25,635 nt of DNA from a virus: positions 1 through 25,635 of IMG/VR virus record IMGVR_UViG_3300025098_000254; one strand, 5' to 3'. The notes beneath the pieces were generated by a model. The model was not told the origin of the DNA. It saw only the letters and a program-made list of their open reading frames with translations, and made no database searches. Of this stretch, positions 5,782-25,635 are shown one piece after another (the stretch's first letter is position 1; each line of letters begins with the position of its first letter). A program made the position numbers and the translations under genes.

Positions 5782-5800
5782 AATTTCTTTTTATATAGTT

Positions 5801-5826: not shown

Positions 5827-5841
5827 TCCTATAAGTGACTA

Positions 5842-6597: not shown

Positions 6598-6625
6598 GAT
6601 ATAATATAATTTAAAAATTTTAAAA

Positions 6626-6662
6626 GGGTAAATATTACCCTCGTTATTTAAACGAGGGTAAT
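6626..6662 (-). terminator. Strong hairpin after the capsid gene, with a competing smaller hairpin
   Basis: Reading the minus strand, a perfect 12-bp stem (6662-6651 with 6645-6634, loop of 5) begins 19 nt after the capsid stop codon. The right arm of this stem contains GGGTAA, and a second copy of TTACCC just downstream (6631-6626) could instead pair with it over 6 bp around a 3-nt loop. The 12-bp hairpin should win. It is followed by T-rich sequence broken by a short C-run, so it looks like a leaky terminator or 3' protection hairpin that would lower tail-gene expression relative to capsid protein. Confidence 0.65.
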
Positions 6663-6681
6663 TATTTACATTAATTATTGT

Positions 6682-8157
6682 TTATGCTTTAAGCAATACG
6701 AAGTTATTCGCGGCTTGTACACATAGACATCTTTCTGACAAGAAGTTTACTACCATTTCGTCTGCATCAGATGTATAGTTTCCACCTACAGATCCAGTGA
6801 TCCAAGATTTCATTTTTCTGTCATCAGCTTCTGAAGCTCGGTAACGTACGTGTAAGAAAGGTCTAGATATGTTTTTACCCAAAGACTGATCGTAAACGGT
6901 AGAAGTACCAGCAGGTACCATCAAACCTTCAATGTCTCCGATTAATCCTCTAGTAGTAGAATCATTTAAGTATTTCCAGTCAGACTTGTAGAAGTCGTAA
7001 GAACCTCGTCTGAATCCAGAGAAACCTAAATTTAAAGCCATATCTTCAGAGTTGTTGAATACTCCATAAGAAGTACCACCAACCTGGTATGCATTTTGAG
7101 AAGCTAACATTTTGTCAATTTCTAGAGTTGTAGCTCTGTCTAAGAACATCATGTTTTCTTCAATAGCACCTTGCTTGTCTAACTCTTGTAGTATAGTATC
7201 AAAAGTGTCAAGGCCAGTATGGCTGAACTGTACACCAGTTGCACTTGAAGCTCCAGTTCTGTAAGTATCAAAATCTGTACCGCTATAAACCACACCTCTT
7301 GCTTCTACAGCAGCGAATAAACCTTCTGTTCCTTGTACATTTAAGAAATTAGTTCCCATTGTTTGAGCAGCTTTTTCGCCTTCAACCATCATCATTTCAA
7401 TTTGGTCTTCAAAACGTAAACGAGCTTCGTGCTCAGACTTTAAGTACCATAGGTAGCCAGAAGCACCATTTTCAGTAGTTACTTCAACCCAACCGATTTG
7501 AGCAGTGTCAGAACCATTAACTTGGTATCTGTCACGCATGATAACTGGTCGATTTGAGAACTGTTGAAAAGAAGCGTCTATAGAACCTGTGATTCCAGAA
7601 GATCCTTTCGTGTACTCAGTACCATACACAAAAAGCTTAAGGTCTTCGCCATTAGCGAAAGCAGCACTACCAGAAGTAGCTAGTGTAGCTTGAGTGTAGG
7701 GTTTTACAGTTACACCTGTGTTTGTAACTGCTGTAACAAGACATTTAAGTACTTTTGTGCTAAGAGCATTAGACACGATAATTGTGTCATGAATTTTAAC
7801 TAAGTGAGCAGCTGGAAGAGTGATAGTGTTACCAGTTGCGCTGTTAACTTGAACTGTATCAGCTCCAGATTCAGCAGCATCGTATGCCACGTGTAGTCTT
7901 CCTTGCTCTGACCAAATAACTTGATCTGAAGCCAAAGGCATCTCAGCTCCAACCATTCTTAAGAATCCGTTGATTGTACGTTTTCCGTATCTTTCAACTT
8001 CTTTCTCATAGATTTCTGGTAAGAATTGAGCTGCAAATGAGTTAGTGTCTCCTGCTGTGCTGCCTCCGTTGAAAGACAAGTAGTTGTCTCCAAAAAGGTC
8101 TTTAGTAGGTCTTGGGGTTACGTGTTTTAAAACAGCACCCGTATTATTAATTGCCAT
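6682..8157 (-). CDS. Major capsid protein (491 aa)
   Basis: A 491-residue protein starting at ATG 8157. Residues 45-91 contain FLPEIYEKEVERYGKRT, a stretch rich in Met/Gly, and VIWSEQGRLHVAY, a pattern I associate with major capsid proteins of crAss-like and marine Bacteroidota phages, expected to have the HK97 fold. Residues about 100-190 are Thr/Val-rich beta strands that look like an extra surface domain inserted in the fold. The stretch around 235-290 (SEHEARLRFEDQIEMMMVEG) would be the long spine helix. The gene follows the scaffold-like gene by 26 nt and is followed by a strong hairpin, as expected for the most highly expressed virion gene. Its leader is A/T-only with no Shine-Dalgarno. 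Size and gene order support the call; the fold is inferred. Confidence 0.85.
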   Translation of the reverse strand: MAINNTGAVLKHVTPRPTKDLFGDNYLSFNGGSTAGDTNSFAAQFLPEIYEKEVERYGKRTINGFLRMVGAEMPLASDQVIWSEQGRLHVAYDAAESGADTVQVNSATGNTITLPAAHLVKIHDTIIVSNALSTKVLKCLVTAVTNTGVTVKPYTQATLATSGSAAFANGEDLKLFVYGTEYTKGSSGITGSIDASFQQFSNRPVIMRDRYQVNGSDTAQIGWVEVTTENGASGYLWYLKSEHEARLRFEDQIEMMMVEGEKAAQTMGTNFLNVQGTEGLFAAVEARGVVYSGTDFDTYRTGASSATGVQFSHTGLDTFDTILQELDKQGAIEENMMFLDRATTLEIDKMLASQNAYQVGGTSYGVFNNSEDMALNLGFSGFRRGSYDFYKSDWKYLNDSTTRGLIGDIEGLMVPAGTSTVYDQSLGKNISRPFLHVRYRASEADDRKMKSWITGSVGGNYTSDADEMVVNFLSERCLCVQAANNFVLLKA

Positions 8158-8183
8158 AATTTTGTTTTTTAATTTTTAAAAGT

Positions 8184-9395: not shown

Positions 9396-9427
9396 AATAA
9401 AATATTATAAAATTGTATAGTTTTGTG

Positions 9428-11854
9428 TTATCTTGGATCAAAAGCATTTAATCCAAAACCGCCACCCATTATATCATTACCCGATGACTCGAAGTTTTTA
9501 GGTGGACTTTCTTTTTTTCTTTGATCTATTAATTCAGACTGTTGTGTAGCTTGAATTTTAGTTCTTTCATCTTTACGATCTTCTTTTTGCGATTCTCTTT
9601 CTTTTAGTATCTCAGTTTCCATTTGCTTAATCTGCATGTTCAACTGAAACTCGTGATTCATAAGCTCTTTCTTAAGCATAGCTTCTTGCTGCATTTTCTG
9701 CATTTCCATCTGCATCTTGCTTTGATCTACTTGAATTGTAGTTTGAGCCATTGCTTGATTTTTCTGCATTTCTGCTTGGGCTGCAACTTGCTGCGCCTGT
9801 GCGTTTGCTTGCGCTTGAGCTTGAATATTTTGTTGCTGCATCAACTGATCTTGCTGCGCCTTCTTTTTTCTTCGTATTTTTAATACTTGATTAGCTAGCT
9901 TTATGTTTTTAATCTCTCTAACATCTATAGCATCTTCTAGCTCTATACCGTTTTTAGACAACGCTACTTGAATATTGTTTTCAAGCATTTGCTTTTGCTC
10001 ATCATCTGGTGCTAGCTCTATAAATATACCAAAATCATACAAGTGCAAATCACCCATCTCTTTTAACGTAGCTACATTGTGACCACCTATCTTTTGTATA
10101 AAAGCATCTTTAGTTGGTGAGTACTCTATAATATCAGATATCCTTAGAGATATACACTCTGACAACTCAGCTGTTAAGAACAAACCACTTTGCAGTATAT
10201 GCCTAGTAGCAGTGTTTGAATTTGCTGCTGCCATTTTTTGTATACCTACTAAGGCATTTTTATCAGGTGTACTACCATCACGCGCCTCGTTCAATCCGGT
10301 GACATCTCTGATCATTTGAAGGTAGTAGTTGTATGTTTGTATCAGTGAAGCTAATTTAGCTCCTCCTGAGCCGCTCTGTATCTCTTGAATAGGTACTTTA
10401 CCTGGATTCATGTCTCCATCAGCAGTCATTGATCTACCAATTATACTACCTGTTTGGAAGAACATGTTTAAAGCTTCTTGCGGGTTGTAGTTTGTTCCGT
10501 TACCTAAATCTATTTCAGCTAAGCCATCAGCGTCCAAGTATATACCATCAGGTATCATACGTGACATTACTTGTTGCAGCTTTAAATGTGTAAGCTGTAT
10601 CATGTCAGCGAAAGTAGTTGTTCTACTAACTAAAGACTCAATCTTACCTTTATACATTCTAGGAGCTACTACTGAATAGTTCATTTTAACCTTAGTGTAA
10701 TCACTTTTAGGTCTCATCATGTTCTTAGCTAACTCCCACTTTAATAGCTGACTAGTACCTAAAACTAAAGCTCCTTCGTATAAAACCTCTATTTGCTTAG
10801 ACATTTTACCAAACCTCTCCTCTAGCACTTCGTTAGGTGGATTAAATTGATCGTCTTTAACTATTACCTTGCTAGCGCCTGTAGCTGTTTCTTTTACTTT
10901 GTATACTTCGTTCGCGTAAGTCTTAAAATTAAAGTATAATACTTGAACTTGATTTCTATCTAAGTTAGTTGACTCAGCTAGACTTCTATTGTAGAAACCT
11001 GTAGACTGATAACCTTGCTTACCTATTTTCTCTAGATCTTCGTTAGTTAGATCTGGAAACTCTTTTTTAAGCTCGTTTATAGGTACTGTTTTAATTTCAC
11101 CTATATAGTATATATCATCAAAGTATGGTGACTCAGTGTACGAATAAACAATATTAGCTGGATCAACATATTCTACTTTAACTCCTTCAGATTTTGTAAA
11201 TGTATTTTTTACAGCACCTATACCTATTACAGTTAGGTCATAATTAACCCTTTTCTTTATAAGCTCGTATCTGTTACCTTCTAATATAGTGTTTATAGCT
11301 TGTTCTTCAGCTATTTCTACAGCCTGCTTGTAGTTTAGCTGCATGTGTAACTGAAGCTCTTCTTCGCTGTCTGGTAGTTGCTCCGGAGGAGTACTTGCTA
11401 TAGTAACACCAAAAGCTTCTTGAGCAAACTCGTTAAGATCTCTAGTTTTCATATCCGCAATTATATCCTCCATATATTTAGTTCTTTTAGAAACTCCATA
11501 TGGATCTTGTGAATATGCTTTTATATCAAATGTTCTTTCTGATATTCCGTTAACTACTATGTCAACGAATTTAGGTATAATAGGAATAGGCTTCCAGTCT
11601 AAGTTTAAGTAACTTAAATCGCCGTTAATCGACAACTCATCTTTATATTTTTGTATTGATTGTTCTCCTCTAGCGTACAAACGTAGTTTGTGGAAGTTGT
11701 TTTGATTGCTAGCAAATCTATTTGTACCAGTGTCTCTTTTGAACCACTCGTACTCAATAGCTTTACCAACTTTAAGTCCATACTCTTTCGAGACTTTCTC
11801 TATGTCACTAACAACTTGACTAGGAAAATAATGCGATGTAACTGACTCAGCCAT
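9428..11854 (-). CDS. Portal protein (808 aa)
   Basis: An 808-residue protein encoded directly after the large terminase (1 nt between stop and start) and before the scaffold-like and capsid genes, the classic portal position. The N-terminal two thirds are mixed alpha/beta. They include NRFASNQNNFHKLRLYARGE (about 45-64) and, in the central region, a helical segment with DVTGLNEARDGSTPDKNALVG, which matches the stem/wing part of portal proteins where a V-T-G-x-N/S motif is common. Residues from about 660 to 780 are a long Gln/Met/Ala-rich coiled coil, ending in a Gly-rich tail (GGGFGLNAFDPR). About 800 residues and this Q-rich end fit portals of crAss-like phages, which are larger than T4 gp20 or HK97 gp3. 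Twelve copies would form the DNA-entry ring. The ATG at 11854 has no Shine-Dalgarno and probably depends on coupling to terminase translation. Confidence 0.85.
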   Translation of the reverse strand: MAESVTSHYFPSQVVSDIEKVSKEYGLKVGKAIEYEWFKRDTGTNRFASNQNNFHKLRLYARGEQSIQKYKDELSINGDLSYLNLDWKPIPIIPKFVDIVVNGISERTFDIKAYSQDPYGVSKRTKYMEDIIADMKTRDLNEFAQEAFGVTIASTPPEQLPDSEEELQLHMQLNYKQAVEIAEEQAINTILEGNRYELIKKRVNYDLTVIGIGAVKNTFTKSEGVKVEYVDPANIVYSYTESPYFDDIYYIGEIKTVPINELKKEFPDLTNEDLEKIGKQGYQSTGFYNRSLAESTNLDRNQVQVLYFNFKTYANEVYKVKETATGASKVIVKDDQFNPPNEVLEERFGKMSKQIEVLYEGALVLGTSQLLKWELAKNMMRPKSDYTKVKMNYSVVAPRMYKGKIESLVSRTTTFADMIQLTHLKLQQVMSRMIPDGIYLDADGLAEIDLGNGTNYNPQEALNMFFQTGSIIGRSMTADGDMNPGKVPIQEIQSGSGGAKLASLIQTYNYYLQMIRDVTGLNEARDGSTPDKNALVGIQKMAAANSNTATRHILQSGLFLTAELSECISLRISDIIEYSPTKDAFIQKIGGHNVATLKEMGDLHLYDFGIFIELAPDDEQKQMLENNIQVALSKNGIELEDAIDVREIKNIKLANQVLKIRRKKKAQQDQLMQQQNIQAQAQANAQAQQVAAQAEMQKNQAMAQTTIQVDQSKMQMEMQKMQQEAMLKKELMNHEFQLNMQIKQMETEILKERESQKEDRKDERTKIQATQQSELIDQRKKESPPKNFESSGNDIMGGGFGLNAFDPR

Positions 11855-11855
11855 A

Positions 11856-14060
11856 TTATCTTTCTATTAGTTTTGAATTAAAGCCTTTATTTTTATATTT
11901 GGCTATACTTAAGTTTAATTTTTTTCTCTCCATGTTTTGCTTTGGTGAATACAAATGCCTATTGCAAGCCATAATCGCTAGGCCAGAGCTAATAGATGCA
12001 TCAAATTTTGTTCTTTTAGTTATGTCAAACTTTGCCCAATCATTTAAAGTATCGTTGAATGGCATTGACCCAAAGCCTTGGCTTGTTTCTCCAACGTGAT
12101 CGTTGATATACATTTCTATAGCAGCTGCGTGAGCTTGCTTTATGTCTTCGCTTGAGTTTGGCATTCCACCAATCTCTCTTTCTGTTACAGATAATTTATT
12201 CCATACTTTATCTGGCCTATTCATTGAGAAGCCTCTGTAACCTCTTCTTTTAAAATAATAAAGTAATCTTGGCTTGTTATTCTCTGCTAATATTGGCATG
12301 CCATAAAATATGCAAGCCATAAGTACGTCTTCAAAGAACATTTCGGCAGTTTGAGGCCTTGCTATGTATTCTAAGAAAAACTCATTAGCTGGTGCGTCTT
12401 CCATACTAAACTTTGTAAGTCCATGTAAAGAACCTTTAGAACCTCTACCATCTACTGTGCCGGATATATCGTAAGAGTCACACCCAAACGCTCCTATGTG
12501 CTCGTTTCCAGGGTGTTTTACACCGTTCTTCAATACCATTTTGTTTTGAATATGTACTGGTGGCACCCAGTTCACTTTGAATCTACCTTTTTGATTTGGT
12601 AAAAACATTACCTTAGTATCTTTTACTCCATTTAACCACTGAAAATTACCAACATTTAAATCAACAGTTTCTTCGTTGTAATCTATTTGCTCGTATATCT
12701 TAGTTAAATTAAATATACTATTTTTAGTTTCGTCTCTGAAAGCGTGTTCTTCAGTTCTAGGAAACTGTCTATAGAATTCGTTTAAAGCGTCTTGATCTGA
12801 CTTTAAACCTTCTGCTTCGTTCTGCCAATGACTAAGTACGCCTACATCTATTACATCTCCATGTGGGTCAATAACCTCTCGTTCAGGTGTTTCGAACACA
12901 GGTAGTCCATAAGAATCAATGAATCCCTCGTAGTTCCATTCCATAGGTATGAACAAAGAATAGAGGCCCGAATTTGTCTGTCCGTTTCTGTTTCGTTTTG
13001 TAACATCTGAACTATTGTAAAGTTTTTTAAATTCGTTACCGCCTTTATCTAACGCGTTGCTAGTAGAACCCATCATGCATTTACCGATGATCCTACTACC
13101 AAGTCTTAGTGTAGTTTTAGTAACTCGCCAATTATTTAAAATATTATTAGGTCTCTCCCACTTACCACTCTCGTCGTGCACTAATAATCTTAATTTTTCA
13201 CCATCGTAGCTGTTATCACCAGTATTCTTCCAATCTATGGTTGTATCCAGTCCATCGAGCTCCTCAGGTTTGTCGGTGCTAGTAATGTTCCGTCTTGTAA
13301 GTTTAGAAGCGGGGACTCTGTACGCAAGCTCGGTCTTTGGTCGGTCCATCCCGTCCTGTATTGGTTTAAAAAAGAATGGATAATTGACTGATATTGGTAC
13401 AACTTTATCTGTGAACATTTTCTTGGCGTCTGGTCCAGATTTGGACAGTATTCCGAATCGTGCATCTGAACTAATAGTTGCTTGATTAACAGTTTCTCCT
13501 GACGCCATAAATGAGAATCCTGATCTACGATTTTTAAGATAGCACATTCCATAAGACCTTTTGTCTGCTTTACATGCTTCCCAGAATATGTAGAACAACC
13601 TGTTGGCTTCCCTAAAGTCTGGGTTACCGACATCAATCTTTGACCATTGAAGGTACATGTAGTGAGTACCAGTAATATAAGTAGGTTTACCATTGTTGTA
13701 AAACCAAAAACCTTCTTCTCTTTTCTTAAATTCGCTTTCAATGTAATCTATATATTCGTTTTTAAATTCGTTTGGTAGTTCTTTCCAGTCAAATATAGTT
13801 TTTACTCTATTGAGTTCCTTAGGATAAGGAGTCACCTCCCATTTATCACTTTTAAACTTATGAGCGTTATTTATTGGTGGTAAAGCTATTTTTAGATTTT
13901 GTATTTCGTATATTTCACCTATCTTACCAGTCTTACTTATTACAACAATGTCGTGTTCTTTGTTGTAGCCATATTCCCAGCGTTTAGCTTTGTTTAATCT
14001 TTTTATTGAATTAATAGATACGTGATCGTCAACTATTTTATATAAACTCTGCTGATACAT
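11856..14060 (-). CDS. terL: Large terminase subunit, ATPase-nuclease (734 aa)
   Basis: A 734-residue packaging motor protein. The ATPase part has a deviant Walker A at residues 176-184 (KNRRSGFSF, in the K/R...G-F-S style without the usual GK[T/S]), Walker B LLVHDE at 292-297 (D296, E297) and coupling motif GSTSN at 331-335. The nuclease part (about 520-700) has likely metal-binding acids D528/D531 (CDSYD), E593 (LAEN) and D687 (FDAS), in an RNase H-like order. It would pump DNA through the portal and cut it. Its start codon overlaps the stop of the 91-aa gene by one base, and an AGGAGGAG sequence lies just upstream, the only strong Shine-Dalgarno in the window. The portal gene follows after 1 nt. 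Length exceeds T4 gp17 and fits crAss-like terminases. Confidence 0.9.
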   Translation of the reverse strand: MYQQSLYKIVDDHVSINSIKRLNKAKRWEYGYNKEHDIVVISKTGKIGEIYEIQNLKIALPPINNAHKFKSDKWEVTPYPKELNRVKTIFDWKELPNEFKNEYIDYIESEFKKREEGFWFYNNGKPTYITGTHYMYLQWSKIDVGNPDFREANRLFYIFWEACKADKRSYGMCYLKNRRSGFSFMASGETVNQATISSDARFGILSKSGPDAKKMFTDKVVPISVNYPFFFKPIQDGMDRPKTELAYRVPASKLTRRNITSTDKPEELDGLDTTIDWKNTGDNSYDGEKLRLLVHDESGKWERPNNILNNWRVTKTTLRLGSRIIGKCMMGSTSNALDKGGNEFKKLYNSSDVTKRNRNGQTNSGLYSLFIPMEWNYEGFIDSYGLPVFETPEREVIDPHGDVIDVGVLSHWQNEAEGLKSDQDALNEFYRQFPRTEEHAFRDETKNSIFNLTKIYEQIDYNEETVDLNVGNFQWLNGVKDTKVMFLPNQKGRFKVNWVPPVHIQNKMVLKNGVKHPGNEHIGAFGCDSYDISGTVDGRGSKGSLHGLTKFSMEDAPANEFFLEYIARPQTAEMFFEDVLMACIFYGMPILAENNKPRLLYYFKRRGYRGFSMNRPDKVWNKLSVTEREIGGMPNSSEDIKQAHAAAIEMYINDHVGETSQGFGSMPFNDTLNDWAKFDITKRTKFDASISSGLAIMACNRHLYSPKQNMERKKLNLSIAKYKNKGFNSKLIER

Positions 14061-14335: not shown

Positions 14336-14885
14336 ATTTAATTGTAATTTGTGATGTCATTACTCTATAAACACGCTCGCCATCTATAATAAACTCAAAC
14401 TCGCTTCTAGGTGTAAAACCTACTTTGTTTCCTACTTTTATACCTACGCTTTCTAAAATATCATTAGAGTATTTAACTATACCAACTAATGGTTTTTCTT
14501 TTTCTAAAGAAAACGTATCATCATTAGCTATAGGTTTTACAAAGCAATAGTCGTCTAGTGATTTCCATTCTTCGTTGTGTTTATATATATATAACTGATC
14601 GTCACTGACAAAGTACTTGTCTTCAGCAAAAAAGCTTCTACTGTTCTGTTCTTTGCCTCTGACGTCATGCCATCTTCTAAATACATTATGGTGTATGATA
14701 ACCTCATCACCAATTTGTATATCAGTTTTTTTATTCTTTGGCAAACCAACAACTATAGCGTTGTTGCTTACGTTCTTATGAGTAAATATCTCGGTGTTTA
14801 ATATAAGATCTACATCGCCAACTTTTTTAGTGTTGTCGTATCTTGATCTTACAGGTGACACTATAAAACTATCCCAACCGTGCAT
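14289..14885 (-). CDS. Tandem GroES-like co-chaperonin (198 aa)
   Basis: A 198-residue protein that reads as two GroES-type units. The first (about 5-105) has VSPV, AIVVGLP, a hydrophilic loop, IQIGDEVIIHHNVF and then EDKYFVSDDQLYIYK. The second (about 112-185) has CFVKPI, VGIVKYSND, GIKVGNKVGFTP, SEFEFIIDGERVYRV and a closing strand. This order (VKP... G-V... VGD-V-F... E-Y/F-x-IDGE... I) is the GroES/T4 gp31 pattern. T4 gp31 replaces host GroES when folding capsid protein, so a similar role for capsid or fibre protein is plausible. The mobile loop between VKP and GIV in each unit would touch GroEL. Its ATG overlaps the previous stop by one base (TAATG), and its end overlaps the next gene by 47 nt. 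The fold is inferred from motifs only. Confidence 0.6.
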   Translation of the reverse strand: MHGWDSFIVSPVRSRYDNTKKVGDVDLILNTEIFTHKNVSNNAIVVGLPKNKKTDIQIGDEVIIHHNVFRRWHDVRGKEQNSRSFFAEDKYFVSDDQLYIYKHNEEWKSLDDYCFVKPIANDDTFSLEKEKPLVGIVKYSNDILESVGIKVGNKVGFTPRSEFEFIIDGERVYRVMTSQITIKYEHEGEEREYNPSWV

Positions 14886-15389: not shown

Positions 15390-15710
15390 TTAGTCTTCTA
15401 TAGTCATAGTTACAGATGTAGGGTTTTCTTTTTCTGCAATACTTGCAGCTAAACCAGCCTCTATAGCATCTACTTCATCTTCACCCATAGCTTCTTTGAC
15501 CCAGCCAACTACTGTTGCATTTGTTAGATCTTCAAAGTCTACAAAGTCTACATCTTCATCTACTTCTATCTGCTTAGTGCCTATAGATGTTGTACTAATG
15601 TCACCTTTAGAAGCTTCAACTATCCAATGCACATTGTACACTACGTTGCTTAAATCTCCTTCTGTAGGTTTTACGTCTACTGTTTTACAGTTCCAATTGT
15701 AATTAATCAT
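15390..15710 (-). CDS. Small acidic phage protein (106 aa)
   Basis: A 106-residue acidic protein. The N-terminal half is beta-like (NVVYNVHWIVEASKGDISTT, then a GTKQIEVD turn). The second half is helical and acidic (FVDFEDLTNATVVGWVKEAM, then DEVDAIEAGLAASIAEKE), with a final beta strand TSVTMTIED. This V-Y-N-V-H-W ... VVGWVK-x-x-x-G pattern recalls a small conserved protein found beside fibre and structural genes in marine phages, including cyanophages; its function is not known to me. The start codon overlaps the stop of the 40-aa gene (ATGA) and it directly follows the fibre gene group, so it may be a fibre accessory or assembly factor. No signal peptide or membrane segment is present. Confidence 0.65.
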   Translation of the reverse strand: MINYNWNCKTVDVKPTEGDLSNVVYNVHWIVEASKGDISTTSIGTKQIEVDEDVDFVDFEDLTNATVVGWVKEAMGEDEVDAIEAGLAASIAEKENPTSVTMTIED

Positions 15711-15829
15711 TTTTTTTGTTTTTTATTTGTTAATTTTTTAGCTTTGCTAAGTTGTTCTAAAGTTATAGGTATTAGTTTTTTACCTTGATCTTCTATTTTT
15801 TTTCTTAGTTCGGGTGTTAGTTTTATCAT
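15707..15829 (-). CDS. Basic mini-protein coupled by ATGA overlaps on both sides (40 aa)
   Basis: A 40-codon frame, MIKLTPELRKKIEDQGKKLI and then PITLEQLSKAKKLTNKKQKK, strongly basic toward the C-terminus and probably helical. Its ATG overlaps the TGA of the giant fibre gene (ATGA at 15829-15826) and its own TGA overlaps the ATG of the 106-aa gene (ATGA at 15710-15707). Two 4-nt stop-start overlaps with no wasted base are hard to explain unless the frame is translated by re-initiating ribosomes. The poly-A-rich end also encodes the Lys tail. Function is unknown; the basic tail could bind nucleic acid or the acidic neighbour protein. The alternative is a chance frame in AT-rich DNA. Confidence 0.6.
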   Translation of the reverse strand: MIKLTPELRKKIEDQGKKLIPITLEQLSKAKKLTNKKQKK

Positions 15830-18800
15830 GCTTCGTATGCTGGTAGTACGTAGTTTGTTCCGCCTATATCAACCATCAACCATTCGTCAGGTTCTGATAA
15901 GTAAAAATCAGCAGAACCTGGTGGGGGATTGTTCTTAATTATAGCTTGCGTTGGTGATTGGGACTGTGCTTGTGGTGATTGGGTTGGACCAGAGCCTCCT
16001 GTATCTATTCTAATTGAATCGGTAACGTGTAATTTAGCTCCAGGACTAGTTGTTCCAATTCCAACTTGGCCAGCTTGAGTTACTGCAAGTTGTACAGTAG
16101 ATGTGCCTCCTGGTTGAGTCTTAATGTAAAAGCTACCAGCGTTTTGAGCCATAAAAATTTCACCTGTTAGATCGTTGTTTTGACCTATCCACATATAATC
16201 ACTACCTGAAAAATCTCCGTTAGAGGCGTCAAGATATACTCTAGACGCTCCCGAGCCAGTGTTGCCCACGCCTATTGCACTTGTTCCAGATGAATCACTA
16301 TTTACATGAAGTTGGAATTGAGGACTAGTTGTCCCAATCCCGACGTTGCCGGATGCATTAATGCGCATAGCTTCAGAAGGCGCTCCTGAGACATCTCCTT
16401 TTGTAGAAAAAGCTAAACCAGTAGTGCTTCCGAAAACACTAGTTTCATTGACTAAATTTATACTAGCTCTCACGGAATTAGCAGCAGAGCCAGAAGAATC
16501 TTTGCTAAAATATTCTAAAGAAGCAATCGTTTGTCCAATAGTCCAACTTGCATCTCTTGTCCCAGTTATTCTAAGAGTTGGTATTGAGTCCGAGATATCT
16601 AACTTAGCACCAGGCGAAGTCGTCCCAATCCCTACGTTGCCCGCAGAAGTAATATATAATTTAGTAGCAGTTGCACCAGAATCGGATGTCTGTAAAGCTA
16701 AAGTTGTGTTACCTCCTGTAGATTTTGATGCTATTACACCGTCTCCACTTACTGCATTATATTGTAATTGTAAACTGTTACTTGTTGATATGCTACCATC
16801 ACCTGAGTATATAGTGCCGTTAATGAGTGCCGATCCAGCAACGTGAAGCTTTTGACTCGGACTAGTAGTTCCTATACCGACGTTGCCTGTAGACTTAACA
16901 ACCATCTTATACCCACTATCCGCATAAACACCTAGCACCGTAGCATCGTGAGCAGATGTGGCATCTGAACGGATTAATAATGCTTGTGCGTTTGCATCAG
17001 AACCTGTATTGTATATTCTTGAAACCCAAGTATCAACATCTTTTTCAACGTCTAATGTAAAATCAGGACTAGTAGTACCGATTCCTAAGTTGCCGCTACT
17101 GTTTAATCTCATTAGTTCAGAACCAGGGAAAGTATTATTAGCTCTAAATACAATGCCGTTTCCGTTTCCTTGTAACCCAAATAAGTTTGAGTTATCATCA
17201 TAGAATATTTCGCCAGCTTGGCTTGTTCCGCTTTGATTATCCCAAAATTCAATACTACTTTTACCAGAATCAACTGTATTTGTTAATCTCAACACTGGAC
17301 TGTCTGCGGATATATGTAATAAATCTTCAGGACTGGTAGTACCAATACCTACGTTGCCGTTTCCAGCAATGCGCATACGCTCAACATTATTCGTTCCTAA
17401 AATAAGCGGTCCATTATAATAATTTATAATATTTGCCTCGTCTGTAGTAGAATTGTTAAAAATTTGCAATCCACTAATAGCAGAGCCGCTTTGAACCGTA
17501 ATTGCAGAAGTTGTAGTTCCAACAACTGTTAATTTACTTACAGGACTTGTAGTCCCAATACCTAGACCTGTATTATTTAAAGTCATTTTATAATTAGGAG
17601 TAACACCAACACCAGTATGCTGAGCCCAATTCCAAATAGGTGTGCTTGAGCCTATAGTGTTAAACTGACTGTTCGTACTTGAGTAGAACCTATGCTCTTG
17701 AGACCCTGAATTATTAAACAATATACCTCCATTTTCACCACTACCCACCACACTAAGCTTAGCACTTGGACTAGTCGTTCCAATCCCTACGTTGCCCGCA
17801 GAAGTAATACGCATTCTTTCGGTCTCGTTATTTGCATCTCCGGTTATGAAACTAATAATACCGTATTCTGAGGCTAGTTTTAGATTGTTTTCACTATCAT
17901 GGAGTTGAATGTAACTTCTACGGGTTCCGCTTTGTACAAAGCTAATATATGGACTTCCGTCTGCGTTGCCGCTTTCTAGTCTTGCAAGTTCATCTCCAGT
18001 ACTAACTACGTGAAGTTTACTAGTTGGACTAGTAGTCCCAATACCTACGTTTGCTGCAGAAGTATCTACATACAACATTGACGGGTTGGCATTGTTACCA
18101 ATCTGTACATCCCTACTTCCATCGCTCATCAATGTAAGTATACCACTGTCATTTGTTAATTTACCTACGTAGGTTGCTCCAGTACCTACTCTCCAACCTC
18201 CTGTTGTATAGGCATCTCCATTTACGTAAAGCTTATCACTAAAAGCTGTAGAAGTTGAGTTTATTAAAAGTCTACCGCTAGAATCAATACGCATTCTTTC
18301 ACTTTGCGAACCAACCGTTGTTGCTGAAGAATGAAATGTAATACCATTATAACCGTCTATTCTAGTTGTAGAATTTGGAAAACTTACACCAGCAGAATTT
18401 GATGCGGAGCCATTATATATTTTATTTGCAAAAATACTTAAATTTCCATTTACTGTTAATTTATCTGTAGGACTACTCGTCCCAATACCAACGTTACCAG
18501 AGCTGTTTATGGTTAGCCTTGTGTTATTACCACCAGTTCTAAAATATAAACCATCTTCTGATCTTACAATAACATTTTCACTAGCAGATCCTTGTATTAA
18601 TAAATTATCATCAGCATCATCACCTATAAAATGTGAATCACCAAAGTTTATATTTCCTGCAAAAGTTGCAGCGTTAGTACTGTAATTTAAAGCGAGTAAA
18701 GTTCCTGCGTGAGCTTCAGTTGATAAATTTCTTTTAGTAAATTGTAATTCATCATCCCAAGCATATATTTTAAATAAAGAACCTACAGTACCGTTTATAT

Positions 18801-21800
18801 CTTCAAGTCTAATCTTAGGTACTAATAAATCATCTCCAACAATTACATCACCTGCAAAAGTTGATATTCCTGTTGCAATAGTTAATTCTGTAACAGCAGA
18901 GGGTTGTAAATAAATAGGTTTATTTTCCCCAGTATTATAATCTGACTGAATCAATAAAGCATCTGCTGCTCTTATATATGTACTAGCAGCATCATTTGTA
19001 AATGTTAATTCATTACCATTTATATTGAGGTCATCTGTAATAGTTAAATCACCTGTAACTTTAGCTCCTGCGCTTGTAGTTTCAAGTTTTTGTTGTGCTC
19101 CTGCTCCATTATAATATAATTTAGTAGCACCTCCATCAGTTCCTGAAATGTAAGTTTTTGTTCCTGCATTATTACCTATATAAACGCTGTTTGAACCTCT
19201 TATATATAAATCTCCTGTCCCTGTATCTGTTATATAACTATTAGAACCGTCGTGATAGATTTGTAGGTCGCTTGAATTACCTGCTGATATTTTTATATTA
19301 TCAGTAACTCTTATTTGTTTGCTAAATAAAGTTTCTTCTGAACTACCATCTATTCTTAAATATTCAGTAATTCCACCACTACCATTGTCATTGTAAAATC
19401 TTATTTTACCGTCATCAACATTTTGTATAAACCTTAAATCTCCTGTTCCTATTTCAGAAATATAACTATTAGAACCGTCGTGGTATATTTGAAGATCGTC
19501 TTGATCACCAAATAAAGCTTTTTTAGTATCCAGGTGTTTAGTATCTCTTACAAACACAGTTTTTGTTATACCACCATCAACTCTAAAATATTCAGCAACA
19601 CCACCTGAACCATTGTCACTTCTGAAAATAATATCTTTGTCATTTGCGTATTGAGACATATATAAATCTCCATTTATATTGTCTATATTATTATTACCAC
19701 TTAATCCATTATGATATATTTCAAGGTCTGAACCTGTACCTAGTATTAGTTTATTGCTATCGCCTAGCTTTATATTTCCGGCTACTTCTAATTTTTGACT
19801 TGGGCTAGTGGTTCCGATACCAACGTTGTCTGCAAAGGTTGCTCCATTAGAACTAATTTTACCATGAGTTACGAAAGTAGTTGAAGATGATGCGTTAAAA
19901 TTAGTAGTAGGACTTTTCGTGAAAAAACTACCACTTGTAGTTAAATTCATAGCCCAATCACCAACCCAATCAATAGCACTGGTGTAACCATCGTTTCCAT
20001 GTACTTTAGCTACATGAATAGTAGGATAACTCCAAGTTGAATTTGTCTCTCCAATTGCAATTACTCTTCTATTGTTAGTCCCGTCATTTCTCCAACCAAG
20101 ATAAACAGACTTAGGATTATCACCTATTACCTTAACACCAGCTTGATGCCACATGGTGGCACTAGTATTACTATTCCCGCCACTATTCCAGTTGTGACCA
20201 CCTATTATAAGCTTAGTAGCGTTAGTGCTATTATATTCGTATATGTCTATTTCTATATACGCCATGTCATAATTGGCAAGCGTACCCGGTAAGTCAATCA
20301 CAACTTGACCTACTGTAGAATTATTTGCTTCTCCCCATAGTGCGTTTTGCCCCGGATATGCAATTTTAGGATAAGCATCATGACCTATTCCTAGATGACC
20401 ATGTACTATAGCTTTGTCTGTCAAAGCGTTTCCAAGTATTGTGTCGCCAGCTACTTCCAACTTGGCATTAGGACTACTCGTCCCAATACCTACGTTGCCA
20501 CTGGTGTCAATAGCCATAGCATTACCAGAGTTGAAAGTATTATTATTTACGTTGAACCTAATACCTTTAGATAACCCGCCTTGGACGACAGCGTTTGCTC
20601 CAGAGTAACCAATCATTGTTCTTTCGTTAGCAAAGCGCATATAGGTCAAAGTGTTAGTATCATTACCAACACTTAATGCGTCTCCTGTGCCCCTGATTTC
20701 TAATAAATGACCCGGACTTGTTGTCCCAATACCAACTTTACCATTTGTATCAACAGTTACTCTAGTACCTCCGTTAGTTTTTAAATCTAACCTATGGTTT
20801 GTGTTTGTTCCTACAACACCTACTGATGCTTGAGATTGAATTAGGACTCCTGCACCCGAAGTTCTTTGGGCTAGGATTTCTGCATTTCCCGCACTAGCTA
20901 CGTGTAGGTTGTGGGAAGGTGACGTCGTTCCAATCCCGACGTTGCCATCCGCCTGTACGGTTAATCTATTTGCCCAACTAGAACCTCCATAAGCCCATAA
21001 ATTTAAGCTGCTACCATCCGCGTTTTGTTGAAAATTGTAAGCTCTGTTGTTAGCGGCGTTTGCTATATAAACACCAGAGGTTGCTAAGGCGTCATCTCCA
21101 TTTTTAAACAATCGGATTTGACCTTCCACGTGCAGTTTACCTGAAGGACTAGTCGTTCCAATACCAACGTTGCCACCGTTCAAATAAGAATTACCATCTG
21201 AATCTATATGAACAGTTGTGCTAACACCGCTATTTTTTAAATTTAAATAACCATCGTTTGCATTAATACCAACTTCAAAAAAGTTATTGTTGTTTGTTGA
21301 TAAATAACTTGCTCCCAATACTACACTTGTATCACTCGGCGATGCAACCATTAGCCTCTGTTGAGGACTACTCGTTCCAATACCGACGTTTCCTGCTGAA
21401 GTGATACGAACACGTTCTGTATTTCCTGTTGAAAAAGAGTGGCTACCCGAATTATTTCCTGAAGACTTGTAATCTACATTCGTTCCGTCTACTTTTAAAT
21501 AAAAGCTTTGAGTAGAGTGTCCTATTCTTGTTTGATAAGTGCCGTCAGCTCCAACAACGTGTAGCTTGCTAGCAGGACTAGTAGTACCTATCCCTACGTT
21601 GCCGCCTGAGGTGATACGCATACGTTCGGTAGAACCCCTGCTTATAGTAAAAGTTTGATTTTCAGAAACTAAGTTTAAATCTTGTGAATCTCCCCCACCT
21701 CTTATTTTTAAAATTGTTTGTCCAGACGTAACAGCTCTAATATTCCCATCAACAGTTAAAACTTCCGTTGGATTAGTAGTTCCAATACCTACGTCGCCAC

Positions 21801-24800
21801 CTGAGGTGATACGCATTCTTTCAGAGCCTCCATTAAATATCCTTACATTATTTGCACCAGATGAAACATTACCAAAAATAGTATCTCCTCCGCTTGTTGA
21901 AATGCTAGTATAATCTGAGCCTTCAGATAACCTTATTTCTCCAACAACCTCTAACTTTGAGCCAGGACTAGTAGTTCCTATACCGACGTTGCCGCCACTT
22001 TTTAGAGTCATTCTTACACCTGTCGACCCGTGTTCTTTAATCTGTAAATCAGAATTCACCCCACTAGCAATAGGATTAAATGCCCAACCTCTGTTTGGGT
22101 ATGAAGCATTTCTTACCCCTAAAAACAAAGACTCATCTCCGCTGTTAGCAAAAACACTTAACTCACCGTGAACATTTTGGTTTCCTTGTGATGCAACAGT
22201 ATATTTATTTACCTGTAATTTGCCAAGTGGACTATTCGTCCCAATACCAACTAGTCCATTTCTTCTAATAGTTATACCACTAGCAGTTCCTCCTGATCCA
22301 TCTCCGTGTATTTTAAGCAAATTATCTGCGCCTGCTCCTGCTCCATCGTGTTCTATAAAGAAACTTGCATCTCCAAGTATAGCTTCTGAAAATATAATTT
22401 TATTTTTTGTAGTTGCTGCGTTTACTGCTAAAAGCTCAATAGTACCATCTCCAGCTTCTGTTTCAATTGTTAATTTACTGCTAGGATTAGTTACTCCAAT
22501 CCCAACGTTACCAGCAGATGTGATACGCATTCTTTCTGCATTAGCAGTTTCGATAGATAAATATCTTGAAGCATTACTGTATATAAAACCTCCATCAAAC
22601 CCATCATCTTGGTCTCCAAAAGCTATTTGAGAATAACCCGTGCTATGAGAAGCAATTTGAAGTATTGATTGACTAAATCCTTCTATAAGCGCAGATGTGT
22701 TTGTTAAAGCCGAAGATAAAGTGTTACCGTCTTTAACATGCAATTTAGCTAAAGGCCCAGTCGTTCCAATACCTACGTTGCCTGATTGATTTAAGCGCAT
22801 TGCTTCCGAACCGCCTGCATTGAACTTTATTCCATCAGCACTTGAACCATAGATTTTAGCATTACTATTACCGAAATTTATACCTTGATTGTCATCAAAT
22901 AGCACAACGCCTGATAAGCTTATATTTCCAATTACTGAAAGTTTTTGACTAGGATTAGTATTTCCAATACCGACGTTGCCTGTACTTGCTGCTAAGTATG
23001 AATTACCTGTACCACTTAATCTATTTTGATCTGCAGAGGCATTTGTTAATACATCTACATTACCAAATAAACGATTAGTGTCTAAAGTTTTAGCCAAATA
23101 AGGCAATTCCATTTGGCTAGTGTGCCTACTAGACACATAGTTCATTAAAGCTATTTGAACACTGCTAGCGCCAGTTACTAAAGTAAACTCTATATCTGTA
23201 ACGTAGTTATTGCTAGGCACAGTAAGCCTTAATACTTCGTAAATAGCATTAGTTGATATGTTTGTTGCACCTGTACAATTTCTCCACACGCCATTTGCTT
23301 TTACTCTTGCAGTTAAACTAGTATAAGCGTGAAGACCGCTATAAAAAGAAAAGTATAAATATCCTTGAGGATAAGTATATCCATTAGCTGGAACTCCAGA
23401 TTGACCTGCTACGTTTATATTTACAGTATGTGTAGTGTTTGCAGCAAAAGTTGTGCCGGATGCATAACTTCCATTAAACATACCCACAACATTATTAGTC
23501 CCACCTGTTATAGTTATAGTAAATCTTCTATCTGCTCTATAAAGTACGTCCGTAAAATCTGGCAGCTGTATATTAGGTTGACCAAATACTGGGTTTATTG
23601 CGTGGAAGCCTAGTGAATCTATTGTTGACGATCCTTGTGCATTAACACCCGTAGAAAAGTTTGCGTTACCAACTACTTGTAACTTGTCTCCATTGTCTGT
23701 AGTAGTACCTATAAGAACGTTACCGTTAGATAAAAATCTTACTTTTTCTGAATTATTTGGATATAATGAAATATATGACCCGTCAACCCCTACTATCCTC
23801 GTTGCTCCTGCTCCCCATTTTAATGATTGCCCTGTATTTACTACTATACTACCTGCTACATCTAATTTTTCACTCGGTACAGAAGTTCCAATACCTAACT
23901 GTCCTGCATTATCTATGTATACTGTTTGTGATCCTGAGCTTCCTCCTCCTCTCAACTCAAGTTTATTAGAATTAGAGTTTTCCCCTATAAACGTATTACT
24001 TCCGCCGAAATATATATGCCTATTATCTCCATCTAGATTAATGTTACCAACTACATCCAACTTCTGACTAGGACTAGTCGTCCCAATACCTACGTTACCA
24101 TCATCTCTTACTCTAAATAATTCAGTTGTAGAAGAATTTTGTACTAGCAGAGATGTTGTAGCAGACGTTGCACCAGATCCTTTTATGTGTAGTCTTGCTG
24201 ATGGGGTTGAACCGGTTCCTATTCCTATGTTTCGACTTTGGTCTATCCTTAATGCGTTGTTGGTGGATATGTTTAAATTAATTCCAGTTTGACTTCTAAT
24301 GTCTATATTATTACCGTTGCTTGACGCTCTGATCTGTGATACATTACCTCCGTCTGAAGTTCTGCTTATGTATAGACCGTCATCTCTCAATTGAATACTT
24401 CTATTGGTAGTACCCTCGCTTACATGCACCCTACCTTCTACGGTTAGCTTCTCTGTTGGACTAGTTGTACCAATACCAACGTTGCTTGAGGAGTTGATAT
24501 TTAGCGTGTCAACTGTACCTCCTGCACCTAATCTTAAATCATCACCACTTTCAGCTGTTATTCTACAAGCGCTTGCTTGCGCTCCTATTGTCATAGCTAA
24601 TCCACCGGAAGTATTGTTTAGCTTTAAATTAACAGAACCAGCATTTGCTATTTCAAGCTTTTCACCAGGACTGGTAGTACCAATACCTACGTTTGTGTCG
24701 AAAGTATATTTACCGTAAGTTGAATTATTAGTAGTAAATTTAAAACCATCTCCATCTTGACCAAATATGTAATGAAGTCCTGAATTTGTATCATCAAGTC

Positions 24801-25635
24801 TTATTAAGGGTTCAGTAGATTCAAGATGTAACAACTCACCAGGACTAGTTGTTCCAATACCTACGTTGCCGTTAGGAATTATAATGTTGCTATAAGTAGC
24901 ATTGCCAATCGTCAATGTTCTATTTGAAGCGGTAGTGTTGGCTGACTGGAGAAGTATTGTGTTATTTCTATTGTCTCTTATAGCATACTGGGAGTCAATG
25001 CCTATGGAACCATCTGTGACTTGTAATTTATTGAGAGGACTAGTAGTACCTATTCCTACGTTGCCTGTGTTAGTGATGCGCATTTTAGTATACGTGTCGC
25101 TAGTACCACCTAATCTAAAATCTAAATAAGAGGCGCCTGTTGTCCAATTGGTCCATAACGCTGTTCCTGTTGTTGAACCATCACCAGTAAATCCTAATCT
25201 ATTACCAGACGCATCACCCATATCTACTTCTAACCTACTGTCAGGACTAGTCGTCCCGATACCAACGTTGCCAGAATTAGCCACATAAAAATCAGCACCT
25301 GCGGAAGCTGACCCATCAATCATTACACCACCGTCCCCATCAGTGTTGTATATTTCTAAATCTCCATTTCTATTGTACTCTATTATGCCTTGCTCTGATG
25401 TGCTTTTTTCGAAAATAAGTTTGATTGGAGATGCATTGGAATTTGTTGATGTAAGTTTTAGGAAGTCTGTAGATGTTGCGGAAGACAACTCTAATAAAGA
25501 GTCAGGACTAGTAGTACCAATACCTACGTTACCTGCGCTAGTAATGCGCATTCTTTCTGTATTTCCTGTTGAAAAAGAGTGGCTACCCGAATTATTTCCT
25601 GAAGACTTGTAGTCTACATTCGTTCCGTCTACTTT
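15826..25635 (-). CDS. Giant modular tail fibre with GIGTTSP repeats, N-terminus off right edge
   Basis: The frame is open from the right edge (no start needed inside the window) to TGA 15828-15826, giving at least 3269 codons; ATG 25551 is only an internal Met. It is built from about 33 modules centred on (S)(A/G)GNVGIGTTSPxxKLxV with 40-100 residues of Ser/Thr/Gly/Asn-rich beta sequence between them, often with ERMRITSAGN before the core. This module is common in fibre proteins of environmental phages and is expected to form a long trimeric beta shaft. Two non-repeat domains interrupt it (about 19832-20460 and 22985-23640), and about 18500-19800 carries YHDGSNSYI-type units instead. The C-terminus has a Pro/Gln linker and a short cap (YLSEPDEWLMVDIGGTNYVL). 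The S74 chaperone-protease that often ends such proteins is absent. It would bind the host surface. Confidence 0.85.
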   Translation of the reverse strand, partial: KVDGTNVDYKSSGNNSGSHSFSTGNTERMRITSAGNVGIGTTSPDSLLELSSATSTDFLKLTSTNSNASPIKLIFEKSTSEQGIIEYNRNGDLEIYNTDGDGGVMIDGSASAGADFYVANSGNVGIGTTSPDSRLEVDMGDASGNRLGFTGDGSTTGTALWTNWTTGASYLDFRLGGTSDTYTKMRITNTGNVGIGTTSPLNKLQVTDGSIGIDSQYAIRDNRNNTILLQSANTTASNRTLTIGNATYSNIIIPNGNVGIGTTSPGELLHLESTEPLIRLDDTNSGLHYIFGQDGDGFKFTTNNSTYGKYTFDTNVGIGTTSPGEKLEIANAGSVNLKLNNTSGGLAMTIGAQASACRITAESGDDLRLGAGGTVDTLNINSSSNVGIGTTSPTEKLTVEGRVHVSEGTTNRSIQLRDDGLYISRTSDGGNVSQIRASSNGNNIDIRSQTGINLNISTNNALRIDQSRNIGIGTGSTPSARLHIKGSGATSATTSLLVQNSSTTELFRVRDDGNVGIGTTSPSQKLDVVGNINLDGDNRHIYFGGSNTFIGENSNSNKLELRGGGSSGSQTVYIDNAGQLGIGTSVPSEKLDVAGSIVVNTGQSLKWGAGATRIVGVDGSYISLYPNNSEKVRFLSNGNVLIGTTTDNGDKLQVVGNANFSTGVNAQGSSTIDSLGFHAINPVFGQPNIQLPDFTDVLYRADRRFTITITGGTNNVVGMFNGSYASGTTFAANTTHTVNINVAGQSGVPANGYTYPQGYLYFSFYSGLHAYTSLTARVKANGVWRNCTGATNISTNAIYEVLRLTVPSNNYVTDIEFTLVTGASSVQIALMNYVSSRHTSQMELPYLAKTLDTNRLFGNVDVLTNASADQNRLSGTGNSYLAASTGNVGIGNTNPSQKLSVIGNISLSGVVLFDDNQGINFGNSNAKIYGSSADGIKFNAGGSEAMRLNQSGNVGIGTTGPLAKLHVKDGNTLSSALTNTSALIEGFSQSILQIASHSTGYSQIAFGDQDDGFDGGFIYSNASRYLSIETANAERMRITSAGNVGIGVTNPSSKLTIETEAGDGTIELLAVNAATTKNKIIFSEAILGDASFFIEHDGAGAGADNLLKIHGDGSGGTASGITIRRNGLVGIGTNSPLGKLQVNKYTVASQGNQNVHGELSVFANSGDESLFLGVRNASYPNRGWAFNPIASGVNSDLQIKEHGSTGVRMTLKSGGNVGIGTTSPGSKLEVVGEIRLSEGSDYTSISTSGGDTIFGNVSSGANNVRIFNGGSERMRITSGGDVGIGTTNPTEVLTVDGNIRAVTSGQTILKIRGGGDSQDLNLVSENQTFTISRGSTERMRITSGGNVGIGTTSPASKLHVVGADGTYQTRIGHSTQSFYLKVDGTNVDYKSSGNNSGSHSFSTGNTERVRITSAGNVGIGTSSPQQRLMVASPSDTSVVLGASYLSTNNNNFFEVGINANDGYLNLKNSGVSTTVHIDSDGNSYLNGGNVGIGTTSPSGKLHVEGQIRLFKNGDDALATSGVYIANAANNRAYNFQQNADGSSLNLWAYGGSSWANRLTVQADGNVGIGTTSPSHNLHVASAGNAEILAQRTSGAGVLIQSQASVGVVGTNTNHRLDLKTNGGTRVTVDTNGKVGIGTTSPGHLLEIRGTGDALSVGNDTNTLTYMRFANERTMIGYSGANAVVQGGLSKGIRFNVNNNTFNSGNAMAIDTSGNVGIGTSSPNAKLEVAGDTILGNALTDKAIVHGHLGIGHDAYPKIAYPGQNALWGEANNSTVGQVVIDLPGTLANYDMAYIEIDIYEYNSTNATKLIIGGHNWNSGGNSNTSATMWHQAGVKVIGDNPKSVYLGWRNDGTNNRRVIAIGETNSTWSYPTIHVAKVHGNDGYTSAIDWVGDWAMNLTTSGSFFTKSPTTNFNASSSTTFVTHGKISSNGATFADNVGIGTTSPSQKLEVAGNIKLGDSNKLILGTGSDLEIYHNGLSGNNNIDNINGDLYMSQYANDKDIIFRSDNGSGGVAEYFRVDGGITKTVFVRDTKHLDTKKALFGDQDDLQIYHDGSNSYISEIGTGDLRFIQNVDDGKIRFYNDNGSGGITEYLRIDGSSEETLFSKQIRVTDNIKISAGNSSDLQIYHDGSNSYITDTGTGDLYIRGSNSVYIGNNAGTKTYISGTDGGATKLYYNGAGAQQKLETTSAGAKVTGDLTITDDLNINGNELTFTNDAASTYIRAADALLIQSDYNTGENKPIYLQPSAVTELTIATGISTFAGDVIVGDDLLVPKIRLEDINGTVGSLFKIYAWDDELQFTKRNLSTEAHAGTLLALNYSTNAATFAGNINFGDSHFIGDDADDNLLIQGSASENVIVRSEDGLYFRTGGNNTRLTINSSGNVGIGTSSPTDKLTVNGNLSIFANKIYNGSASNSAGVSFPNSTTRIDGYNGITFHSSATTVGSQSERMRIDSSGRLLINSTSTAFSDKLYVNGDAYTTGGWRVGTGATYVGKLTNDSGILTLMSDGSRDVQIGNNANPSMLYVDTSAANVGIGTTSPTSKLHVVSTGDELARLESGNADGSPYISFVQSGTRRSYIQLHDSENNLKLASEYGIISFITGDANNETERMRITSAGNVGIGTTSPSAKLSVVGSGENGGILFNNSGSQEHRFYSSTNSQFNTIGSSTPIWNWAQHTGVGVTPNYKMTLNNTGLGIGTTSPVSKLTVVGTTTSAITVQSGSAISGLQIFNNSTTDEANIINYYNGPLILGTNNVERMRIAGNGNVGIGTTSPEDLLHISADSPVLRLTNTVDSGKSSIEFWDNQSGTSQAGEIFYDDNSNLFGLQGNGNGIVFRANNTFPGSELMRLNSSGNLGIGTTSPDFTLDVEKDVDTWVSRIYNTGSDANAQALLIRSDATSAHDATVLGVYADSGYKMVVKSTGNVGIGTTSPSQKLHVAGSALINGTIYSGDGSISTSNSLQLQYNAVSGDGVIASKSTGGNTTLALQTSDSGATATKLYITSAGNVGIGTTSPGAKLDISDSIPTLRITGTRDASWTIGQTIASLEYFSKDSSGSAANSVRASINLVNETSVFGSTTGLAFSTKGDVSGAPSEAMRINASGNVGIGTTSPQFQLHVNSDSSGTSAIGVGNTGSGASRVYLDASNGDFSGSDYMWIGQNNDLTGEIFMAQNAGSFYIKTQPGGTSTVQLAVTQAGQVGIGTTSPGAKLHVTDSIRIDTGGSGPTQSPQAQSQSPTQAIIKNNPPPGSADFYLSEPDEWLMVDIGGTNYVLPAYEA
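19145..19735 (-). repeat. Three YHDGSNSY-type coding repeats in the fibre gene
   Basis: Three units of the form L(Q/E)IYH(D/N)G... G(T/N)GDL occur, two with YHDGSNSYI exactly, and two followed by NGSGG(I/V)(T/A)EY(L/F)R(I/V)DG. DNA at 19238-19275 and 19461-19498 is nearly identical, so these arose by local duplication. Confidence 0.7.
21416..21495 (-). repeat. 80-bp direct repeat in fibre gene, internal copy
   Basis: This stretch matches 25556-25635 at 79 of 80 positions, in the same frame (offset 4,140 bp). It codes VDGTNVDYKSSGNNSGSHSF and neighbouring residues. The one difference (21472) is silent (GAT versus GAC). Confidence 0.9.
25556..25635 (-). repeat. 80-bp direct repeat in fibre gene, edge copy
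   Basis: Second copy of the repeat at 21416-21495, running into the right edge of the window, so its full length cannot be seen. Confidence 0.9.

What the first reader, a model, noticed from the sequence alone, without database searches (positions are those of the whole stretch)
15826..25635. Giant mosaic fibre of at least 3269 residues
One frame covers 9.8 kb and still lacks its start. About 33 GIGTTSP modules alternate with varied linkers and at least two foreign-looking domains. Such modules are known in environmental phage fibres, but this number in one gene is large. If each module adds a beta-shaft segment, the fibre would be very long for a phage that otherwise looks short-tailed.
Basis: partly seen in the sequence, partly recalled or inferred. 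Interest (0 to 1): 0.6.

Follow-up and report, generated by a model that had tools for sequence, protein, structure and literature searches.

The report
Giant shuffled-module crAss-like phage fibre
A marine virus of bacteria, related to the crAss phages, carries an exceptionally long fibre gene assembled from about 30 interchangeable repeat units, and single units have been traded with distant relatives at a short DNA word that every unit shares.

Summary
One minus-strand frame, 15826-25635, has 3269 codons and no start: it holds 22 exact GIGTTSP motifs, 28 close variants and about 33 motifs in all, two inserted domains, a stretch of a second repeat type and a 55-residue C-terminal cap. The window belongs to a crAss-like phage (muzzle, portal, TerL). 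Six complete fibres from relatives are 1191-2175 residues long, so this one is the longest of its group seen here, though not a record: one candidate-phylum bacterium has frames of 3694-6307 residues with such modules. The modules match the solved trimeric beta-helical "mosaic adhesive trimer" (MAT) fibres of Bdellovibrio, where the motif is a capping loop. At that scale the fibre would be about 125-145 nm long.

The new part is module shuffling. Single modules are shared at 89-97% DNA identity with phages whose core genes are saturated at synonymous sites, in scrambled order. 52 of 76 block ends lie at the motif, against 26% expected. The motif is conserved as DNA beyond its protein sequence. 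Four near-complete relatives encode an Erf annealing recombinase. I read this as a known fibre type built by recombination-driven cassette exchange. Trimerisation, virion location and Erf's role are inferred.

The parts
15826..25635 (-). Fibre gene, 3269 codons plus stop, 5' end missing (off contig)
   Evidence: PHROG tail fibre families phrog_9942 (1.6e-144) and phrog_18345 (1.1e-130)
23692..25533 (-). GIGTTSP module array 1 (residues 35-648)
22990..23616 (-). Inserted domain A (about residues 674-882), about 65% identical to a domain in the L092 fibre
   Evidence: no PDB sequence match; poor model, pLDDT 45
20458..22980 (-). GIGTTSP module array 2 (residues 886-1726)
19861..20427 (-). Inserted domain B (about residues 1737-1925), 58% identical to a domain in an S74 fibre on a contig with T4-type neck genes (L436)
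   Evidence: no PDB sequence match; failed model, pLDDT 35
18526..19773 (-). Second repeat type, DLQIYHDGSN.Y segments (about residues 1955-2370), related to fibres of cyanophages, roseophages and pelagiphages
16036..18498 (-). GIGTTSP module array 3 (residues 2380-3200), including modules 93.9-97.8% identical in DNA to L090 and L093
15829..15993 (-). C-terminal cap, about 55 residues (YLSEPDEWLMVDIGGTNYVLPAYEA), in place of the S74 chaperone
   Evidence: alignment A1; no S74 match
25555..25611 (-). 57-nt exact repeat of 21415-21471 next to the contig end, the likely cause of assembly stopping
15390..15710 (-). DUF7936 gene directly downstream of the fibre; candidate fibre accessory or assembly protein
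   Evidence: Pfam PF25590 1.9e-25; fibre directly upstream in 23 of 26 sampled viral hits, 0 hits in cellular loci
11856..14060 (-). Terminase large subunit, used as the phylogenetic yardstick
   Evidence: phrog_6681 3e-171
9428..11854 (-). Portal protein
   Evidence: phrog_6547 7.8e-159
6682..8157 (-). Probable major capsid protein
   Evidence: phrog_13704 1.9e-95; Crass_capsid below cut-off
2..3994 (-). Crassvirus muzzle protein (3' end off contig)
   Evidence: Pfam PF25731 above cut-off

Best explanation
This is the receptor-reaching tail (or head) fibre of a marine crAss-like podovirus. Three chains are expected to wind into a long beta-helical shaft of the MAT/GIGTTSP type. Each GNVGIGTTSPxxKL motif would form a capping loop that closes one shaft unit and opens the next, domains A and B would be side or in-line binding domains, and the 55-residue cap would end the tip in place of an S74 chaperone. 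A conserved N-terminal cap of about 25 residues, present in relatives and missing here only because the contig stops, would dock the fibre to the virion. The shaft evolves by cassette exchange: homologous recombination in the DNA word shared by every module boundary (GGCAACGTnGGTATTGGnACnACTAGTCCT) swaps, inserts or deletes whole modules in frame, probably with help from the Erf annealing recombinase these phages encode. Shown: one frame, cap architecture in relatives, homology to solved MAT fibres, single-module transfer between distant lineages, exchange borders at the motif, DNA-level conservation of the motif, purifying selection. Inferred: trimerisation, length of about 125-145 nm, virion location, receptor binding, Erf as the enzyme.
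For: Fibre families with E to 1e-144. PDB hits to MAT fibres, 8OND 7e-11 with the motif aligned; the published capping-loop consensus and trimer structure (PMC10769870). Same gene slot, caps and downstream gene order in L092, L094 and L103; same C-cap in L100 and the second L093 fibre. Modules shared with L093 have pS 0.09-0.27 and with L100 0.12, while TerL, portal and o14060 have pS 0.72-0.87 against L093 and TerL 0.80 against L100. 52 of 76 block ends within 30 nt of the motif against 25.7% for random shifts, p about 7e-15. Scrambled order. Motif codons skewed: GGC 0.67 vs 0.14, AAC 0.88 vs 0.37, AGT 0.89 vs 0.27. Erf in four near-complete relatives. Erf and other Rad52-like recombinases act efficiently on short, diverged homology (PMC3945230).
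Against: No structure, proteomics or read data. Models of domains A and B failed. Erf cannot be checked in the window, which is a fragment, and was not found in two partial relatives, G002 and G005. Three codons inside the motif vary freely, which plain homogenisation by recombination does not explain. Block ends are not independent, and BLAST extension through a conserved motif inflates the effect to some degree.
Confidence: 0.75

Rival explanations
1. Assembly artefact: modules of several strains were joined by a metagenome assembler into an over-long gene.
For: Repeat-rich gene in a metagenome contig that ends inside it; the contig of a 65-kb relative (G013) also ends inside its fibre.
Against: Only one exact repeat of 40 nt or more, at the contig end. 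Shared modules are 74-98%, not 100%, identical, all in frame, with dN/dS at most 0.37. Fibre-DUF7936 spacing is conserved with L092.
Confidence: 0.08
2. Vertical descent and in-house tandem duplication only: modules multiplied inside one lineage, without exchange between phages.
For: Two internal copies share 89% identity over 132 nt. A module shared with L092 has the divergence expected from the core genes (pS 0.38 against 0.32-0.42).
Against: L093 and L100 modules have pS 0.09-0.27 against saturated core genes, and in scrambled order. No other exact duplicate of 40 nt or more inside the gene.
Confidence: 0.07
3. The DNA-level conservation of the motif is not for recombination but serves translation (pausing between folding units) or an RNA or DNA signal.
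For: Constraint is codon-specific (AAC 24/24, but GTN, GGN and ACN free). First-Gly GGC is also preferred in general viral and cellular samples (0.51-0.56 against 0.22-0.28).
Against: No RNA structure signal (mean z -0.4). The skew is far stronger in the lineage with module exchange than in cellular proteins.
Confidence: 0.2
4. The protein is a secreted or cell-surface adhesin made during infection rather than a virion fibre, as MAT proteins are in Bdellovibrio.
For: MAT proteins are cell-surface fibres in a bacterium (PMC10769870); no virion proteomics here.
Against: Gene lies beside the structural block before TerL. In PhicrAss001 trimeric tail fibre gp22 docks by its N-terminal 26 residues (PMC10172136), comparable in length to the conserved N-cap of relatives.
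Confidence: 0.05

Closest known systems
Mosaic adhesive trimer (MAT) fibres of Bdellovibrio bacteriovorus (Bd2133, PDB 8OND; 8OML; 8OJN)
   Same: Homologous shaft units and the capping-loop motif (VGIN/GTxxPxxKL); variable tips, with S74 and non-S74 members (PMC10769870).
   Different: MATs are about 1000 aa, bacterial, with a signal peptide and a conserved N-terminal domain of about 130 aa. Here: at least 3269 aa, phage-borne, different N- and C-caps, many more units, single-module exchange.
GIGTTSP-type tail fibres of cyanophages, pelagiphages and roseophages
   Same: Same repeat motif and related DLQIYHDG repeats.
   Different: Below 60% identity in every cultured phage matched (mostly 27-44%); some fibres of this type end in an S74 chaperone; no cultured phage matched the cap or domains A and B.
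PhicrAss001 tail fibre gp22 docked on tail hubs
   Same: crAss-like virion; N-terminal segment of about 26 residues docks the fibre (PMC10172136).
   Different: Homology of the N-cap to gp22 not tested; the window lacks its N-terminus.
Phage tail fibre domain mosaicism (PMC10684548; Erf/Rad52-like relaxed recombination, PMC3945230)
   Same: Recent swapping of fibre segments between phages; relaxed recombinases.
   Different: Here the exchanged unit is a single repeat module of about 70-105 residues with borders at a codon-conserved motif repeated about 30 times in one gene.

Membership tests
MAT / GIGTTSP beta-helical trimeric fibre | Repeated capping-loop motif (VGxGxxxPxxKL type) between beta-rich units | tested here: met
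MAT / GIGTTSP beta-helical trimeric fibre | Sequence homology to a solved MAT fibre | tested here: met
   8OND E=7.2e-11, 8OML, 8OJN
MAT / GIGTTSP beta-helical trimeric fibre | Trimerisation into a beta-helix | not testable with these tools
   Only single chains can be predicted; not attempted for the shaft
MAT proper (Bdellovibrio superfamily) | Signal peptide and conserved N-terminal beta-rich domain of about 130 aa | not testable with these tools
   N-terminus of the window gene is missing; related phage genes start with a different cap of about 25 aa
S74 (endosialidase chaperone) fibre | C-terminal Peptidase_S74 domain | tested here: not met
   No Pfam match in the window fibre, while L109, L075 and L436 match PF13884
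Crassvirales / crAss-like phages | Muzzle protein of the crassvirus family | tested here: met
   PF25731 30.5 bits against cut-off 27
Crassvirales / crAss-like phages | Crass_capsid family MCP above cut-off | tested here: not met
   16.6 bits against cut-off 27; a head-and-packaging PHROG family matches strongly
Crassvirales / crAss-like phages | Placement inside a named family by TerL phylogeny | not tested
   Closest cultured-phage records by TerL: Flavobacterium Elemovirus 46.7%, plus Cellulophaga phages; Elemovirus is not placed in Crassvirales in the record. Hence 'crAss-like' only
Phages with Rad52-like (Erf) recombinase | Erf domain in the genome | tested here: inconclusive
   Present in G001, G003, G004 and G008, not found in partial records G002 and G005; the window is a fragment without that region

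The most novel reading that the evidence does not exclude
The 30-bp codon block at every module boundary is a dedicated recombination hook kept by selection at DNA level. It lets crAss-like phages, and perhaps other marine phages, rebuild their fibres in frame from a shared pool of exchangeable shaft cassettes, comparable to exon shuffling.
Probability: 0.25. Interest if true: 0.75.

Novelty: new variant of a known kind. Interest (0 to 1): 0.5.

Why it matters
Fibre mosaicism in phages is well known, but usually as exchange of tips or large domains. Here the exchanged unit, its borders and the shared DNA word can be read directly, so the mechanism of fibre remodelling becomes testable in culturable relatives. 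It also links crAss-like phages to the MAT fibre class used by predatory bacteria, suggests how a short-tailed phage might reach past long surface polymers, and points to DUF7936 as a candidate accessory protein of these fibres.

Tried and rejected
Structure models of domains A and B from two-sequence alignments were too poor to search with (mean pLDDT 45 and 35), so no fold search was run. RNA structure at the motif: no signal against synonymous shuffles. RecT recombinase: absent from all six relatives searched. Rfam and tRNA scans of the window: nothing. NCBIfam on the fibre: nothing. DNA-level match of a 7975-base part of the fibre gene to cultured phages: none. Domains A and B and the cap have no match in cultured phages. 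The size record was rejected: a bacterial genome (G022) has frames of 3694-6307 aa with such modules.

Full report
OBSERVATION. The frame 15826-25635 on the minus strand is open for 3269 codons up to the contig end. It holds 22 exact GIGTTSP, 28 GIGT[TSGN][SNTG]P and 33-34 GIG-type motifs; 27 regular motif-to-motif units average 74 residues. Two non-repeat domains (A, about residues 674-882; B, about 1737-1925) and a second repeat type (DLQIYHDGSN.Y, about 1955-2370) interrupt the arrays. The only exact internal repeat of 40 nt or more (57 nt) lies beside the contig end, a likely reason why assembly stopped. The record is a linear fragment of 25,635 bases.

SURROUNDINGS. All main genes lie on the minus strand: fibre, DUF7936 gene, four small genes including a GroES-like one, TerL, portal, one gene of no known family, probable capsid, other structural genes, muzzle. 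The muzzle matches the Pfam crassvirus family above its cut-off; the capsid match to Crass_capsid is below cut-off. The records closest by TerL are 63% (Manatee Spring phage genome MW202828), then 46.7% for cultured Flavobacterium Elemovirus, with Cellulophaga phages also matching. I therefore call it crAss-like and do not place it in a named family.

RELATIVES. A 55-residue C-terminal cap (YLSEPDEWL.V.I.GTDYVLPAYEA) found 17 loci with a single sequence and 21 with an alignment. Complete fibres: L092 2175 aa, L100 1763, L093 1647 (a different C-terminus) and 1191 (two tandem fibres), L103 1593, L094 1430. L092, L094 and L103 begin with MGDIKFYSPVDFDDTSSGVTIEGDL or a close variant; more distant relatives have a similar start (M.IKIYAPLELADTSAG). 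The window fibre lacks this cap, so it is incomplete at its N-terminus and already longer than every complete relative found. At the same slot, other relatives end in an S74 chaperone (L109, L075) or in another tip (L108). Size alone is no record: genome G022, a candidate-phylum bacterium, has frames of 3694-6307 aa with such modules.

WHAT THE MODULE IS. The fibre matches solved MAT fibres of Bdellovibrio (8OND 7e-11, 8OML, 8OJN), with the motif aligned at GNLGLGTAAP and GLVGINTAAP in the solved chain. The paper describes trimeric beta-helix units closed by capping loops with consensus V-G-G/N-pi-X-X-P-X-X-X-L, a 135-residue unit 60 A high and a 370-residue tip 142-150 A long (PMC10769870). 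Scaling gives about 125-145 nm for 3269 residues. This is an estimate; domains A and B may not add length.

MODULE EXCHANGE. Blocks of the window fibre match other fibres at 71-98% DNA identity, in frame where tested, and in scrambled order. L093 and L100 core genes are saturated at synonymous sites relative to the window (L093: TerL pS 0.78, portal 0.72; L100: TerL 0.80), yet shared modules have pS 0.09-0.27 for L093 and 0.12 for L100. These modules moved between lineages recently. The module shared with L092 and the L092 core genes have similar divergence (pS 0.38 against 0.32-0.42), as expected for vertical descent. dN/dS of shared blocks is at most 0.37. Over 18 fibre genes including the window's, 52 of 76 block ends lie within 30 nt of the motif centre, against 25.7% for random shifts (p about 7e-15; the ends are not fully independent).

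DNA-LEVEL MOTIF. In the window fibre the motif uses AAC 24/24 (33% elsewhere in the gene), GGC 17/24 (11%) and AGT 23/27 (24%), while GTN, the second GGN and the first ACN vary freely. In the crAss-like set: GGC 0.67 against 0.14 expected, AAC 0.88 against 0.37, AGT 0.89 against 0.27. A codon-neutral sample of IMG/VR contigs shows the same direction more weakly, and cellular genomes mainly GGC and GTC. Across 120 motif copies the consensus is GGCAACGTAGGTATTGGnACnACTAGTCCT. RNA folding does not explain it. The likeliest reading is shared homology maintained by exchange; the codon-specific freedom is unexplained.

RECOMBINASE. Four near-complete relatives encode an Erf protein. Erf and other Rad52-like recombinases recombine short and diverged homology (PMC3945230). 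Whether the window phage has one cannot be seen.

DOMAINS A AND B. A is shared with L092 only in the scan made. B is 58% identical to a domain in a 2208-aa S74 fibre on a contig with T4-type neck genes, so it appears to cross phage morphotypes. Neither has a PDB sequence match, and models failed.

DUF7936. In loci sampled only for the motif, a profile of this gene found 26 viral loci and no cellular locus; in 23 of 26 a fibre lies directly upstream. No held paper names it. It may be a fibre assembly or accessory protein (inference).

VERDICT. Fibre identity is near certain and the MAT-type shaft likely. Single-module exchange at the motif is well supported. Erf as the enzyme and the motif as a selected hook are hypotheses. 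No held paper found in the searches describes module-level shuffling of this kind, but subscription journals are mostly absent from that library.

Noticed in passing
window 15390-15710 (-); homologues in L214, L225, L215, L120, L129, L150, L124, L184 and others: DUF7936 (PF25590, phrog_7802) sits directly behind GIGTTSP-type fibres with very different tips in many viral contigs and is absent from the cellular loci sampled: a candidate fibre chaperone or accessory protein.
   Followed up: partly
L436 (IMGVR 3300020438_000105), 3418-10041: A contig with T4-type neck genes carries the window's domain B (58% identity) in a 2208-aa S74 fibre: domain exchange across phage morphotypes.
   Followed up: partly
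L251 / genome G022 (Candidatus Buchananbacteria MAG): At least six open frames of 2504-6307 aa with GIGTTSP-type modules in one candidate-phylum genome.
   Followed up: no
L093 1751-10267: Two tandem GIGTTSP fibres of different N-termini and tips in one phage, both sharing modules with the window.
   Followed up: partly
G013 (65,415-base record, L360): A near-genome-sized relative whose contig also ends inside its fibre gene after 1840 aa; assemblies of this group may tend to break there.
   Followed up: no
motif DNA in IMG/VR and GTDB samples (L120-L356): Excess of GGC for the first Gly of GNVGIGTTSP even in bacterial and archaeal genes (0.56 against 0.28 expected); cause unknown.
   Followed up: no
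window 14289-14885 (-): GroES-like (phrog_13932) gene conserved just upstream of TerL in nearly all relatives with sequence there.
   Followed up: no
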